Shown here piece after piece: positions 3,611 through 47,609 of a stretch of 64,000 nt of DNA. The stretch covers positions 45,828 to 109,827 of IMG/VR virus record IMGVR_UViG_3300042564_002372; one strand, 5' to 3'. Each line of letters begins with the position of its first letter. Position 1 is the first letter of the stretch. The notes beneath the pieces were generated by a model. It worked only from the letters and a program-made list of their open reading frames with translations. It was not told where the DNA came from and ran no database searches. The translations under genes were made by a program, and so were the position numbers. This DNA is from a virus.

Positions 3611-6300
3611 TAATATATTGGGAAATTAGTGGTTTCTTTAATAAAGGCTGCGGTTACACCATTGCTGAAGCTTTCCAACTGTGGATTTATTTGCCCATTA
3701 ATTTGTTTTGGTAAAGCAACATCTCCTATCAAAAATGATTTTCTCAAGGTGTTTGTATTTTTATCAAATATATAAATTCTTGGGTAAACTACATTTGGAT
3801 TTGCCACATCTTCTTCCAAATCTCCCATTAATGAATAGTTATCACTACTGAAATTAGAAAAGTCTTGAGTCTTGAAGTATGCAGTTGTAGGCTCACCTGG
3901 CTTACTTAAGTTTGTTGTGCCACGTGCATTTAATAAATCAAATGCATTTTTCAAGTTTGGATTTGCTGGAGGTTCATATCCAGTTAAGAATTTATAATCA
4001 TTTCTTTCAATTGGAACATCATAAACTTCACCATCTTTACCAGTAATTTGTAATATATAAGTTGATGGAGATTGTAAGGTTGTTCCAGGTTGAGTTAATA
4101 TACTTGCACCAAAATCTTCTCCTAAAACAACGGATGACAAATTCTGATACATTTCTGGGTCAGTTCCTCTAAACTTCCCAAGTACAGTTATGAAATTATT
4201 TTTATAGTCTTCAGTCTTTAAATCACCTTTGGAAATAGTTGCAATCTTTCCCATTGGAACAGCTCCATTATTTTGATAAGCTTGTGCTACAAACTTATCA
4301 ATATTTTTTTGGTCAGCATCTTTAAAAGATTTTGAAATTTGGAACATGAGTGTAGAAGGAAGTTCTGTCTGCAAACCAACTGTTGTTGATTTTCTAGGAT
4401 ACAAAACCTTCTCTATCTCTCTCATTTTTTGTTCTCCAAATTTAGAACTTAATCTAATTTGTGCCTGATTCCTAAGCATTTCCTGATTTTTATCAACCGT
4501 AAGGCTTCCAAAAAAATTATACATTTCTGGATGAAGATTAACATAATCAATGAGATCTTTTTGAGAAAGATTCACTGACTCCCCACTTGCTAATTTTATA
4601 GATTCAGGTTTAACAGAAGCTACAGCTTTATTGTAGGCTTCAACATCGACTCCTTGTAGAACAGCCATTTGTTTGGCATCTTCTTGAGCCTTGTTCATTA
4701 TTGATCTTTTAGCCTCTAAGCTTTTTGCAATAGCATCTTGAGCACCAATTAAACTGTGTAAAGTTACTGGGACCTTTTCAGGATTTGTTCTGTAAAGAGT
4801 TATTAATGATGATGCCATTATTTGAGCAGTATCATTAATCTCTCCAGAATTTGGATTATTTGTTTTACCACGATAGGCAGCTGCATCAGAAAGTTTTTTC
4901 AATAGCTCTTCCTCAGTGTCTCCTGGGTTTGCCATTCTCAATGTTTCTAATGCAAGTTTATTATTTACACTATTAAATTGTGAAGCCAATTCTGAATACT
5001 CACCTTCAACCATAGCTCTAATTGCACTAGGATCAGCATCAATTGGTGCATCAACTCCTCCACCTTGAAAGTATGCTTGCTGAGCTCTAATCTTCTCCAT
5101 CTCAGCATTATGCTTTTCTTGCTCTCGTCTATCTGAAGCGAGTTTTAAAGCATAATCAGCTTGCCATTGTCTCTGTCCTTGTTCAAACTTATTGATCTCC
5201 ATGCCTACAGTGAACCAAGGATTAACAGAATACTTTCTAGAAACTTCTTTACTAGAAAGAACTTCAGACATAGAGGAGAGATAATTATCTCTATATATCA
5301 TTCCTTTAACAGCCTCAGGATTTCTAGCAACTGCTGCTAGACTTTCTGATTTTGATTCTTCAAGTTCACGATTCAATCCTTCAAAATAACTAATCTCATC
5401 ACTTATTGATTTAATTAGATCTGCATCATATTCTTTAGTCTTGGCTTTGTTTTGTTGTTCAGCTAAACTAATTTTTAAGAACTCAATTTTGCCATTATTA
5501 AACTTTATATTTTTATCAGCTGAGCTTGTAGCAATCACTCCAAGTTGTTCAGGAGTAACATCTCTAAAATTATATCTACCTTCAATAGAAAGTTGTTCAT
5601 AGTCAGCTGGTGTTAAAGCACTTTTGAAAGCATTTAATATTTTTGAAGCATCTTTACCTCTCAAGGTTTCCTCAACCATAACATTATTTATTATGGGGTT
5701 TCCTTTTTCATCTCTTAGATATCTTCCTTGCTCATCTGTTTTAAAAAGATTTGGAACAGTCTTCTCATCAATGCCCACTTCTTTTGCAATGTCTTTAATC
5801 TTTCCCCAAACATCAACAGGAGTTGTATAGTAGCCAGTATAACTAGCTCCTACAGTTGGATTATTAAACCACTCTTGATCTGTTAGATTAAATAAATAAT
5901 TGTTTGCAGGATTGTATTTTCCAGCATCAATATCTTTTTGAATTTTTTCTTGTACAGCTTTTCTCTGAGCTGTTGATTGAACAGCTGAAATAATATCAGG
6001 ATCTTTCGCAACACTACCAGCCATTCCTGCTACAGAATTAACCAACTGATAATTAGAGAAGTCAGCAGCTGCAACAGTCTTTAACTTAGAGCCAAGATCA
6101 TTAAGTTTAGATTGTAGGTATTGCTTATCCTGAGGTCTAGCAATACTAAGCCCTGCAACTTGATCTATCTGAGATTGGATTCTTTGTAACCCTTGGTCGT
6201 AACGCTGTTGCTTCTCCATACCAACAGCAACCATAGCCTCAACAGGAAGCTGTTGAATGTATGGATTAAACTGAGGTATTACATCTGTGAATGAAGCCAT
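3610..6300 (-). CDS. Large virion cargo protein, 896 aa
   Basis: Mostly helical, Gln/Lys/Glu-rich protein with no signal peptide or membrane segment. The N-terminus (ASFTDVIPQFNPYIQQLP, followed by an EKQQRYDQGL helix) resembles the opening of large virion proteins of crAss-like phages that sit in the same place, between muzzle and polymerase genes. Long stretches such as ERELEESKSES and KHNAEMEKIRAQQAYF suggest coiled coil. It shares a one-base stop/start overlap with the next gene and lies 40 bases after the 973-residue gene, so it is in the same late operon. No catalytic motif is evident. A structural or ejected internal protein is the best call; exact role unknown. Confidence 0.7.
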   Translation of the reverse strand: MASFTDVIPQFNPYIQQLPVEAMVAVGMEKQQRYDQGLQRIQSQIDQVAGLSIARPQDKQYLQSKLNDLGSKLKTVAAADFSNYQLVNSVAGMAGSVAKDPDIISAVQSTAQRKAVQEKIQKDIDAGKYNPANNYLFNLTDQEWFNNPTVGASYTGYYTTPVDVWGKIKDIAKEVGIDEKTVPNLFKTDEQGRYLRDEKGNPIINNVMVEETLRGKDASKILNAFKSALTPADYEQLSIEGRYNFRDVTPEQLGVIATSSADKNIKFNNGKIEFLKISLAEQQNKAKTKEYDADLIKSISDEISYFEGLNRELEESKSESLAAVARNPEAVKGMIYRDNYLSSMSEVLSSKEVSRKYSVNPWFTVGMEINKFEQGQRQWQADYALKLASDRREQEKHNAEMEKIRAQQAYFQGGGVDAPIDADPSAIRAMVEGEYSELASQFNSVNNKLALETLRMANPGDTEEELLKKLSDAAAYRGKTNNPNSGEINDTAQIMASSLITLYRTNPEKVPVTLHSLIGAQDAIAKSLEAKRSIMNKAQEDAKQMAVLQGVDVEAYNKAVASVKPESIKLASGESVNLSQKDLIDYVNLHPEMYNFFGSLTVDKNQEMLRNQAQIRLSSKFGEQKMREIEKVLYPRKSTTVGLQTELPSTLMFQISKSFKDADQKNIDKFVAQAYQNNGAVPMGKIATISKGDLKTEDYKNNFITVLGKFRGTDPEMYQNLSSVVLGEDFGASILTQPGTTLQSPSTYILQITGKDGEVYDVPIERNDYKFLTGYEPPANPNLKNAFDLLNARGTTNLSKPGEPTTAYFKTQDFSNFSSDNYSLMGDLEEDVANPNVVYPRIYIFDKNTNTLRKSFLIGDVALPKQINGQINPQLESFSNGVTAAFIKETTNFPIY

Positions 6301-43648: not shown

Positions 43649-44026
43649 ATGTTACAACACTTAGCACCAACAAAATCAATTGAGGTAATTGGCACTCTTG
43701 CTGAAATCGTAGGAACTGGAGGTAAAGTATTCTACTCTCCAGGAAACTGGGATGGAGATAAGCGCATCTTCCTTGAACTAAGAACCGCTTCTGGACAGGA
43801 AGGTAGAATCTTCTGCTCACCTGCTGTGAGCAAGCACCTTCGTGAGAAGACCATGAAGCCATCTCAGTTGTTTGGAATGCCTGTCGCTCTTATCACTAGA
43901 GTTGATAAGACCAAAGGTTACACCGTTACTTTGCCTGGTTCTCAACTTGTGGAACTTGCAGTTCCAACTGAAGTTGAGACTTGGACTCAACCAGCAACAT
44001 TAGAAGAAGTAGAGAGGGTTTCATAA
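43649..44026 (+). CDS. First plus-strand gene, unknown 125-aa beta-rich protein
   Basis: Isolated gene between the divergent control region and its own terminator. Residues 8-110 look like a small beta-barrel: KSIEVIGTLAEIVGTGGKVFYS, KRIFLELRTASGQEGRIFCS, then MKPSQLFGMPVALITRVDKT and GYTVTLPGSQLVELAVPTEV. Codons are more even and GC-richer than in the small genes that follow, suggesting strong early expression. The beta pattern with two V/L/I-rich strands recalls single-strand nucleic-acid-binding barrels, but no signature allows a firm assignment. No signal peptide or membrane segment. Confidence 0.65.
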   Translation: MLQHLAPTKSIEVIGTLAEIVGTGGKVFYSPGNWDGDKRIFLELRTASGQEGRIFCSPAVSKHLREKTMKPSQLFGMPVALITRVDKTKGYTVTLPGSQLVELAVPTEVETWTQPATLEEVERVS

Positions 44027-44037
44027 CCCTCTTTTCT
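44013..44037 (+). terminator. Intrinsic terminator overlapping the stop codon of the 125-aa gene
   Basis: AGAGGGTT (44013-44020), loop TCAT, AACCCTCT (44025-44032), then TTTTCTTC. The eight pairs are perfect and the TAA stop lies at the loop/stem border, so a terminating ribosome would sit on the hairpin. It insulates the gene from the structured-RNA region downstream. Confidence 0.85.
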
Positions 44038-44076
44038 TCTCTATATACAGGGTGGGAGTAAAAACGTTTGGGTGGG

Positions 44077-44198
44077 CTAGTTACACAGAGATTGTATCTG
44101 TGCAAATCAGACATATATTATAAATACAATGAAGGGTTCTACGAGGCCAAGCATGTGGTAATGCGTTGTAATATATATGGTGTGATCTGTGTAACTAG
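44077..44198 (+). ncRNA. Structured RNA candidate, element 1 (122 nt)
   Basis: Closed by a perfect 13-pair helix: CTAGTTACACAGA (44077-44089) with TCTGTGTAACTAG (44186-44198). Inside, ATATATTA (44113-44120) pairs with TAATATAT (44169-44176) and GCAT (44151-44154) with ATGC (44161-44164). A second TCTGTG at 44097-44102 can pair with CACAGA (44084-44089) around a 7-base loop, so two folds compete for the same strand. No credible gene lies here: the open frames on either strand are short and cross the helices. The strand is assumed from flanking genes; it could be DNA-level structure. Confidence 0.55.
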
Positions 44199-44209
44199 TT
44201 TATCCTTAC

Positions 44210-44288
44210 TAAAGTACAACGAATGTAGGGTAATGTACAATTTAATAAAGTTTTACACGGGAAAACTAAAACTTCATGTTGTACTTTA
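44210..44288 (+). ncRNA. Structured RNA candidate, element 2 (79 nt)
   Basis: Closing helix of 11 pairs: TAAAGTACAAC (44210-44220) with GTTGTACTTTA (44278-44288). Inside is a five-pair hairpin with a 7-base loop, GTTTT (44250-44254) / AAAAC (44262-44266). It starts 12 bases after element 1. No coding potential seen. Confidence 0.5.
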
Positions 44289-44302
44289 TCAAGAATTTGT
44301 TG

Positions 44303-44377
44303 AGTGAATAAGAGTAGGAGTGACACCACACACGTAATAATGACATGTTTTCGTAAGTGTCGTTTTTACTATTCACT
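44303..44377 (+). ncRNA. Structured RNA candidate, element 3 (75 nt)
   Basis: Outer helix AGTGAATA (44303-44310) with TATTCACT (44370-44377), eight perfect pairs. A nested helix AGTGACAC (44319-44326) with GTGTCGTT (44357-44364) has eight pairs including two G-U. The apical part holds CACACACGTAATAATGACATG. The nested order and G-U pairs favour an RNA rather than a DNA palindrome. Confidence 0.5.
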
Positions 44378-44399
44378 ATTTTATATAGCATTAACAAAC

Positions 44400-44472
44400 A
44401 ATTGTATGTGGCCACGTAGTGCCTTAATCCATCCGTGATGCATGTGTAAGCATGTAGGATGGACATACAATT
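44400..44472 (+). ncRNA. Structured RNA candidate, element 4 (three-way junction, 73 nt)
   Basis: Outer helix AATTGTATGT (44400-44409) with ACATACAATT (44463-44472), ten perfect pairs. Directly stacked inside are hairpin A (GGCCAC / GTGCC, 44410-44423, one bulge) and hairpin B CCATCC (44429-44434) with GGATGG (44457-44462), which ends immediately before the outer strand. Hairpin B has an inner ATGC (44438-44441) / GCAT (44450-44453). This is a compact cloverleaf-like junction without tRNA signature bases. Confidence 0.55.
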
Positions 44473-44476
44473 TCAA

Positions 44477-44625
44477 TGCACCATTCTCACTTCCCAAGGG
44501 TGAGCAGTTGTAATAGATGAAGCGTCAGCAAAATGGGTCAATGCAGAAATAATTTCACAGCGACATAACCAATGGGTCATGCTGTAATTGTTTGCCTGTG
44601 ACATAATCTATTACAATTGAGTGCA
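44477..44625 (+). ncRNA. Structured RNA candidate, element 5 (three-way junction with internal repeat, 149 nt)
   Basis: Closing helix TGCAC (44477-44481) / GTGCA (44621-44625). Inside: hairpin CTCAC (44486-44490) / GTGAG (44500-44504), then directly a 14-pair helix CAGTTGTAATAGAT (44505-44518) / ATCTATTACAATTG (44606-44619, one G-U), leaving one base before the closing helix. The 14-pair helix encloses two diverged tandem copies starting ATGGGTCA (near 44533 and 44572) and ending CGACATAA or TGACATAA, with ACAGC/GCTGT pairing between them. Confidence 0.6.
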
Positions 44626-44645
44626 GAGGGATTTGGAGGGTCAGA

Positions 44646-44671
44646 TGCTCCCGAGCAGGTGCAAGGCCTGC
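44646..44671 (+). ncRNA. Terminal hairpins of the structured region
   Basis: Two mutually exclusive hairpins: TGCTC (44646-44650) / GAGCA (44653-44657) and GCAGG (44655-44659) / CCTGC (44667-44671) with a 7-base loop. The second is followed by ATTTATTATTT, so it might act as a weak terminator or processing boundary before the small-gene cluster. Confidence 0.4.
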
Positions 44672-44704
44672 ATTTATTATTTAATCATTTAAACGCACAA
44701 CAAC

Positions 44705-44884
44705 ATGTTAAAATCAATTTTAATTTTCTTGTTTCCTAAGACTATTGCTTCTATTAAGAAGGATAGTATTAATGAATATCTCTGTAATCATGAAGATCCA
44801 GAATTTGATCAAATGCAGGCTGATTATTATGAGATGATGAGTATTGAACATCAACAATGGCTAGAACAAGATGAAAACATTTAA
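44705..44884 (+). CDS. Small protein with hydrophobic N-terminus, 59 aa
   Basis: ATG at 44705 in the leader TTAAACGCACAACAACATG, whose AAACGCACA element recurs before other genes of this cluster. The N-terminus (LKSILIFLFPKTIASIKK) is a short hydrophobic stretch followed by Lys, possibly a membrane anchor; the rest is acidic (NHEDPEFDQMQADYYEMMS). The C-terminus overlaps the next gene by 14 bases. No family recognised. Probably a small early host-takeover protein, judged only from location. Confidence 0.5.
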   Translation: MLKSILIFLFPKTIASIKKDSINEYLCNHEDPEFDQMQADYYEMMSIEHQQWLEQDENI

Positions 44885-47184: not shown

Positions 47185-47239
47185 AATAGATAGGGTTTGA
47201 TGTTAATCTAAGTCGCCAGTGCTTTCCAGTGGCAAATTT

Positions 47240-47376
47240 AGTCAGGTGGCGGAAAGTGTGCCCTGTTATTACGGGAAGTACATAGGAAGACGCTAATCAC
47301 GGAAACCTAGTGAGGTAGTGAACGCAAGTGAAAGATGTCTGCGGATATCATGCATGTTCGAATCATGCCCTGACTA
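47240..47376 (+). ncRNA. Expanded tRNA-like element 1 (137 nt)
   Basis: Acceptor AGTCAGG (47240-47246) pairs perfectly with CCTGACT (47369-47375), discriminator A at 47376. T arm is perfect: GCATG, loop TTCGAAT, CATGC (47352-47368). TGGCGGAA follows the acceptor as in Leu/Ser-type tRNAs. But about 100 nt separate D-arm start and T arm, some 50 nt more than in any ordinary tRNA, with a hairpin CCC/GGG (near 47271-47285) but no clear anticodon loop. No encoded CCA. It may be a tRNA with insertion or a mimic. Confidence 0.5.
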
Positions 47377-47500: not shown

Positions 47501-47609
47501 AGTCAGGTGGCGGAATTGGTAACGCACATACAACGAAGGGTGTGTACAGCCCAACCATAAAGAGAGTTGTATGGTGGTATAAATGTGGGTTCGAATCCTA
47601 CTCTGACTA
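47501..47609 (+). ncRNA. Expanded tRNA-like element 2 (109 nt)
   Basis: Same acceptor as element 1: AGTCAGG (47501-47507) with TCTGACT (47602-47608, one G-U), discriminator A. D arm GCG-GAATTGGTAA-CGC (47510-47525) has the GG of real tRNAs, and the T arm GTGGG-TTCGAAT-CCTAC (47585-47601) is canonical. Between them are 59 nt. CATACAAC (47527-47534) pairs perfectly with GTTGTATG (47566-47573), and inside lies a four-pair hairpin GGGT/GCCC with loop GTGTACA, which would put GUA (Tyr) in the anticodon position. No CCA encoded. Likely a tRNA with an enlarged anticodon arm or insertion. Confidence 0.55.

What the first reader, a model, noticed from the sequence alone, without database searches (positions are those of the whole stretch)
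44077..44671. Array of at least five structured RNA elements in a gene-free stretch after the early terminator
About 600 bases hold five consecutive units, each closed by a long helix (13, 11, 8+8, 10 and 5+14 pairs) with nested hairpins; G-U pairs and junction geometry in three of them argue for RNA. No gene with sensible length or composition fits. Position: just past the first terminator, next to the strand-switch. Large ornate phage RNAs such as GOLLD and ROOL sit in comparable settings with tRNAs nearby, and tRNA-like elements lie 2.6 kb downstream here. I cannot show it belongs to either; it may be new.
Basis: partly seen in the sequence, partly recalled or inferred. Interest (0 to 1): 0.8.

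Follow-up and report, generated by a model that had tools for sequence, protein, structure and literature searches.

The report
Twister-like ribozyme in phage RNA array
Right after the first early gene of a freshwater crAss-like phage lies a gene-free array of folded RNAs; one of them is a widespread, previously unlisted relative of the self-cutting 'twister' RNA, carrying an exchangeable arm and often lying beside other known self-cutting RNAs.

Summary
44077-44671 is gene-free, lies between two + strand terminator-like hairpins, folds better than shuffles (z -5.0) and contains the five units described. Three (A, D, E) show compensatory changes in relatives; B and C rest on folding alone. No Rfam family matches, so it is not GOLLD or ROOL.

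The fifth unit, E (44469-44635), can be explained. At least 110 viral loci carry it. Tested distant carriers are crAss-like phages (portal 25-33% identical), with 1-3 copies per genome, and in the 14 loci inspected it lies in the first kilobases of the early genes. Its anatomy is that of a type-P1 twister self-cleaving ribozyme: covarying P1, UAA, P2, P4 hairpin with loop UUCCCAAGG, GAGGG after P2. A pseudoknot joins loop CCC to GGG; all 18 elements with loop CAC and a readable 3' end carry GUG. A hypervariable arm (25-180 nt) occupies the twister P5 position. Rfam's twister models miss it; its L2 is CA, not GC. Known hatchet, pistol and twister-P1 ribozymes lie on the same strand within 3 kb of E in 10 of 69 records.

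Best reading: a divergent twister-like ribozyme subclass cutting early phage transcripts. Cleavage is inferred. The window copy has C at -1 and a weak P1.

The parts
44011..44034 (+). terminator-like hairpin ending the first early gene (ORF 43649-44026)
44043..44076 (+). TATATA followed by GGGTGGG-N13-GGGTGGG; conserved leader, in other loci with a small self-complementary hairpin between the two G blocks; possible start of the noncoding transcript and G-quadruplex
   Evidence: about 30 loci; function inferred
44077..44198 (+). unit A: 13-bp closing helix, conserved 7-nt loop (U/A)GCAAA(U/C) on a covarying hairpin (44097-44111), variable arm
44211..44287 (+). unit B: hairpin region, two mutually exclusive pairings for GTTGTACTTT; sequence conserved, no compensatory changes
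44302..44394 (+). unit C with conserved 3' motif TATATAGCATTAA (44382-44394); weak structural support
44400..44472 (+). unit D: three-way junction RNA with conserved UAGUGYCUUAA and GUGAUG; elsewhere stands alone or replaces the variable arm of E
44469..44635 (+). unit E: twister-like ribozyme candidate, flanking P1 positions included
44474..44476 (+). predicted cleavage site C-1/A1 (U/C)AA, between 44474 and 44475
   Evidence: homology to twister UAA; not tested
44477..44481 (+). E P2 5' strand TGCAC, pairs with GTGCA 44621-44625
44486..44504 (+). E P4 hairpin with loop TTCCCAAGG (44491-44499); CCC 44493-44495 pairs with GGG 44628-44630 (pseudoknot T1)
44505..44619 (+). E hypervariable arm at the twister P5 position (base helix CAGTTGTAAT...ATTACAATTG)
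44626..44630 (+). GAGGG directly after P2, as in twister internal loop L1
44655..44671 (+). terminator-like hairpin at the 3' end of the array (part of unit F)

Best explanation
The stretch is a noncoding, early-transcribed array of modular RNA domains in crAss-like phages, and unit E is a divergent twister-type self-cleaving ribozyme. E folds as P1 - UAA - P2 - P4 hairpin - variable arm - P2' - GAGGG - P1', with the P4 loop CCC docking on GGG to build the twister active site. It would cut the early transcript between pyrimidine -1 and A1 (window 44474/44475). The upstream RNA (leader, A-D) would end in a 2',3'-cyclic phosphate. The downstream RNA would begin with the folded ribozyme and a 5'-hydroxyl, which could separate the array from the next mRNA and protect its 5' end. 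Shown: fold, covariation, distribution, position and co-occurrence with known ribozymes. Inferred: cleavage, and its role in processing early transcripts. Not explained: why the arm is hypervariable.
For: Covariation including P1 and the pseudoknot: 19 of 27 pairs with compensatory changes, 0/500 shuffles reach any measure (without P1). Flanking bases pair exactly in the P1 register (z 4.8, 6.8, 5.4, 3.3, 2.5 on one diagonal). All 18 elements with loop UUCAC whose 3' end could be read carry GAGUG; over 90 unique elements 74 are CCC/GGG, 14 CAC/GUG, 2 other. Shared with the RF03160 consensus: UAA directly before P2, loop UCCCAAG, GAGGG directly after P2; -1 is U in 86 and C in 4 of 90. Known hatchet, pistol and twister-P1 matches, partly below Rfam cut-offs, all lie on the strand of E with a gap of 113-2857 nt in 10 of 69 records. 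Clustering of ribozymes near ribozymes led to pistol, hatchet and twister-sister (PMC10085705). About one E per crAss-like genome, in the first early kilobases. A mode of 24-50 nt to the next start codon, with 57 such downstream proteins in 40 families, argues for gene-independent processing.
Against: No Rfam twister model matches E even at E <= 10. The L2 dinucleotide is CA instead of the GC that forms pseudoknot T2; a CC/GG alternative is unproven. P2 has a fifth covarying pair, and the literature suggests extra P2 pairs may disturb the site (PMC5408937). The window copy has C at -1 and only 2 of 5 P1 pairs, although -1 is the less conserved position and P1 is dispensable for cleavage in tested twisters (PMC5408937). 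A near relative (L205/L226) has lost P4. No transcript or cleavage data.
Confidence: 0.75

Rival explanations
1. E keeps a twister-like fold but no longer cleaves; it is a compact scaffold that presents an exchangeable arm, a trans-acting phage RNA (decoy or antisense) made early against the host.
For: The arm is hypervariable, modestly structured (mean z -0.8 over 108 arms) and swapped independently of the core (identical arms on different P2/P4 types); D can replace the arm. About one copy per genome, in the early region.
Against: The conserved positions are those needed for twister catalysis (UAA, GAGGG), which a mere scaffold would not need. P1 is maintained only in the twister register. 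Known ribozymes cluster with E.
Confidence: 0.13
2. E and the other units are cis-acting 5' leaders (ligand-responsive or nuclease-blocking folds) of early mRNAs without cleavage.
For: 43% of E elements lie 15-70 nt upstream of a start codon. The three-way junction plus loop pseudoknot superficially recalls exoribonuclease-resistant RNAs.
Against: Downstream genes are unrelated (40 clusters of 57). Many copies are followed by other RNAs, tRNA-like genes or terminators. The twister match accounts for positions this reading leaves unexplained.
Confidence: 0.08
3. The repeats are DNA-level features (recombination or integration sites, attC-like inverted repeats) that happen to fold as RNA.
For: Units are reordered, inserted and swapped between phages.
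Against: G-U pairs, junction conservation and a pseudoknot with compensatory changes; always on the strand of early transcription in the loci inspected; the base of the E arm runs GTT...AAC, opposite to attC sites (attC comparison from memory).
Confidence: 0.03

Closest known systems
twister ribozyme, type P1 (RF03160)
   Same: P1, UAA, P2, P4 hairpin with loop UCCCAAG, loop-GGG pseudoknot T1 and GAGGG in the same order
   Different: not matched by Rfam models; L2 CA instead of GC so canonical T2 is not met; 5-bp P2; no P3 (78% of annotated twisters have it) and a hypervariable arm at the P5 position in every copy examined (1% have P5; PMC6154101); CAC/GUG version of T1; a long form with a 60-260 nt domain in the P4 loop
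[quoted passage not shown]
   Same: pistol and hatchet members lie in the same arrays on the same strand; found originally by such clustering (PMC10085705)
   Different: different folds; no twister-sister match in the 69 records
theta (HDV-like) ribozymes of gut phages (PMC10879173)
   Same: phage-encoded self-cleaving RNAs, often next to tRNAs; E precedes tRNA-like genes directly in some loci
   Different: HDV-like fold; cleavage site adjacent to tRNAs
GOLLD and ROOL
   Same: phage noncoding RNA near tRNA genes
   Different: single very large RNAs; no model match here

Membership tests
twister ribozyme | (U)AA cleavage-site segment directly 5' of P2 | tested here: met
   A A invariant; -1 is U in 86 and C in 4 of 90; window has C
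twister ribozyme | P1 helix flanking UAA and GAGGG | tested here: met
   diagonal; all 5 pairs show double changes; window copy 2 of 5 pairs
twister ribozyme | P2 and P4 with loop UCCCAAG | tested here: met
twister ribozyme | GAGGG (L1) directly 3' of P2 | tested here: met
twister ribozyme | pseudoknot T1 between P4 loop and L1 | tested here: met
   CCC/GGG with CAC/GUG compensatory set
twister ribozyme | pseudoknot T2 between GC of L2 and GC of the P4 loop | tested here: not met
   L2 is CA in 89 of 90; CC/GG alternative inconclusive
twister ribozyme | score above the Rfam model cut-off | tested here: not met
   no twister match on E at E <= 10
twister ribozyme | self-cleavage at U-A | not testable with these tools
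   needs an in vitro assay
GOLLD / ROOL | covariance-model match | tested here: not met
tRNA | covariance-model match in the array | tested here: not met
   only 47501-47609 matches

The most novel reading that the evidence does not exclude
These phages carry a ribozyme-punctuated early noncoding locus in which several of the modular units (A, D, the neighbouring family G, and E in two architectures) are new self-cleaving ribozyme classes or subclasses that share a 'fixed core plus exchangeable arm' design.
Probability: 0.25. Interest if true: 0.92.

Novelty: new variant of a known kind. Interest (0 to 1): 0.74.

Why it matters
If E cleaves, a ribozyme subclass missed by current models is a standing part of many crAss-like phages, about one per genome, at the start of the early region. 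It would give a concrete system in which to ask what self-cleaving ribozymes do in phages; Eckert et al. (PMC10085705) call the reason for such ribozyme associations still unknown. The arrays mix hatchet, pistol and twister with unclassified RNAs, so they are a place to look for further ribozyme classes. The variable arm raises a new question: what does a ribozyme gain from an exchangeable domain?

Tried and rejected
GOLLD, ROOL and every other Rfam family for the window array (a RAGATH-8 match to unit B at E = 2 was treated as chance). Nucleotide search in named phages gave nothing. A scan of bacterial genomes gave 2 hits: one true E on a 4.6 kb contig in a lake MAG, one chance match in Herpetosiphon. 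Exoribonuclease-resistant-RNA-like function was considered from topology and set aside once the P1 diagonal and the twister anatomy appeared. The first-reader helix of unit B as a conserved outer stem was rejected (A.C mismatches in relatives). An apparently permuted form of E (3' half without the usual 5' half) is no permutation: in most cases the 5' half lies upstream and the P4 loop holds a 60-260 nt insert. Twister-sister and Hammerhead_1 searches were empty, but their controls rang nowhere, so this does not show absence. Gene-specific riboswitch rejected because downstream genes are unrelated.

Full report
WHERE IT LIES. The window is part of a 109,827-base virus record of a crAss-like phage (portal, terminase and major head protein families). 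Structural genes run on the minus strand up to about 43.4 kb, early genes on the plus strand from 43.6 kb. The noncoding stretch follows the first early gene (43649-44026) and sits between terminator-like hairpins at 44011-44034 and 44655-44671. It opens with TATATA and GGGTGGG-N13-GGGTGGG, a leader found in about 30 related loci, in which the spacer is often self-complementary while its sequence differs.

THE OBSERVATION. The helices are there. Folding of 44027-44705 gives z -5.0, with unit values A -3.8, B -1.8, C -2.1, D -3.2, E -2.0. Blastn against relatives shows the units as separate blocks: in L003, L004 and L005 short ORFs lie between them, L004 has two copies of E, and L005 has E before D. 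This is a modular array rather than one RNA. Compensatory changes support A (10 sequences), D (8 sequences) and E (46-47 sequences). B and C are conserved in sequence within 12 close relatives but show no compensatory pairs. No Rfam family matches any part.

UNIT E IS WIDESPREAD. They share UAAUGCACCA, a hairpin with loop UUCCCAAGG, CAGUUGUAAU...AUUACAACUGA, GUGCA, GAGGG, with mostly 25-180 nt of unrelated sequence inside the CAGUUG/CAACUG arm. A covariance model found 97 and 93 matches in two sets of fetched loci, overlapping loci included. In whole records there are 1-3 copies. Twelve of the 13 distant carriers tested encode a portal homologue, at about 25-33% identity. In the 14 loci inspected E lies in the first kilobases of the early genes, on the early strand. 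One genuine copy was found in the bacterial genome collection, on a short contig of a lake MAG.

UNIT E HAS THE TWISTER ANATOMY. Matches to known ribozymes in neighbouring arrays (hatchet in L228; twister-P1 in L149 113 nt upstream of E) led me to compare E with the twister-P1 consensus printed by cmscan: ccuu-UAA-cgCc-GCC-[P3]-GcCGGUCCCAAGCCCGgg-UAAA-gGcg-GAGGG-aagg. E reads N5-(U/C)AA-UGCAC-CA-NN-[P4: CUCAC-UUCCCAAGG-GUGAG]-[arm: CAGUUG...CAACUG]-A-GUGCA-GAGGG-N5. The comparison predicts an unseen P1 between the flanks. Testing 125 flank pairs, only the predicted diagonal is enriched (u1-d1 to u5-d5, z 4.8, 6.8, 5.4, 3.3, 2.5). Counted formally with P1 and the pseudoknot, 92.5% of cells pair, 19 of 27 pairs have double changes, and no shuffle of 500 reaches any of the five measures; slid controls pair 30-51%. 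The pseudoknot has its own test. A scan for loop UUCACAAGG, chosen by the 5' side alone, returned 18 unique elements with a readable 3' end, all with GAGUG instead of GAGGG. Across 90 unique elements the pairs are CCC/GGG 74, CAC/GUG 14, other 2; most of these had been fetched by their 5' side, so the 18 are the cleaner test.

KNOWN RIBOZYMES IN THE SAME ARRAYS. In 69 E-bearing records hatchet is found in 3 (above cut-off), pistol in 4 (2 above), twister-P1 in 3 (E 2e-14 to 3e-11, below the strict cut-off), and no second match elsewhere. All ten lie on the strand of E, with gaps of 113 to 2857 nt in records of 10-128 kb; the product of chance shares is about 1e-11, a post hoc figure. Clustering of ribozymes near ribozymes is established and was used to discover pistol, hatchet and twister-sister (PMC10085705).

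DIFFERENCES FROM TWISTER. The L2 dinucleotide is CA, not the GC that pairs in T2 (PMC5408937); CC/GG pairing is possible but the first of these C's covaries with P2, so T2 is inconclusive. P3 is absent and a large arm at the P5 position is universal in the copies examined, whereas P3 occurs in 78% and P5 in 1% of annotated twisters (PMC6154101). Rfam models do not see E. A long form keeps P1, P2, P4 and GAGGG but carries a 60-260 nt domain starting GUGGAUAU-AAGAC and ending CCAC-CUGAUUAA...UUAAUCAG in the P4 loop (19 of 23 candidate hits aligned, a few of them ordinary short forms). The window has the short form and its close relative L211 the long one. I therefore call E twister-like and do not file it as an Rfam twister.

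THE WINDOW COPY. It keeps the AA of the cleavage site, P2, P4, loop, T1, arm and GAGGG, and the R1 model scores it 88 bits. It has C at -1 and 2 of 5 P1 pairs. In tested twisters the -1 base is the less conserved one and P1 is dispensable for cleavage (PMC5408937), so activity is possible but less certain than for other copies.

MECHANISM AND ALTERNATIVES. Cleavage 5' of the AA would leave E at the 5' end of the downstream RNA. 55 of 129 elements lie 15-70 nt before a start codon, with a mode of 24-50 nt, and 57 such downstream proteins fall in 40 families, which fits gene-independent processing. The arm is modestly structured beyond its base (mean z -0.81, p 4e-11), is swapped independently of the core, and can be replaced by the D domain (L101, L163, L270). 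Its purpose is unknown; a trans-acting or regulatory role is the main rival.

Noticed in passing
loci such as L100:882-1005, L134, L095:3362-3460: A second RNA family (G) recurs beside E in at least 28 loci: UACUCUCAUCCAAGCAGG-variable-CAAGG-GUUGCAA-CCUUG-UGAGAGUAC, with compensatory changes in L095 (CUCUUG/CAAGAG and CAGGG/CCCUG).
   Followed up: partly
window 44043-44076 and about 30 loci: TATATA-GGGTGGG-spacer-GGGTGGG, where the spacer is a small hairpin whose sequence changes but stays self-complementary in many loci; G-quadruplex candidate or early promoter.
   Followed up: partly
window 47238-47376 and 47501-47609: Two tRNA-like genes with recognisable acceptor and T arms but long or disrupted anticodon regions; ARAGORN finds none, Rfam finds the second.
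   Followed up: no
L225 about 4620-4790 (early orientation): A tRNA-Leu-like gene sits directly before E, following a partial copy of the E 5' half.
   Followed up: no
L226 about 4906-5011 (early orientation; same phage as L205): A copy of E without the P4 hairpin, in a close relative of the window phage.
   Followed up: no
L107, L211, L268, L284, L300 and others: Long form of E with a 60-260 nt multi-helix domain inserted in the P4 loop.
   Followed up: partly
window 44382-44394: TATATAGCATTAA recurs at the end of the leader RNA and again within the early region of relatives; possible promoter or processing signal.
   Followed up: no
window 44691, 45898, 46124: AAACGCACA recurs just before early start codons.
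   Followed up: no
L163:6169-6338 and L267:1822-1936: The D domain appears nested inside itself and as the arm of E.
   Followed up: partly
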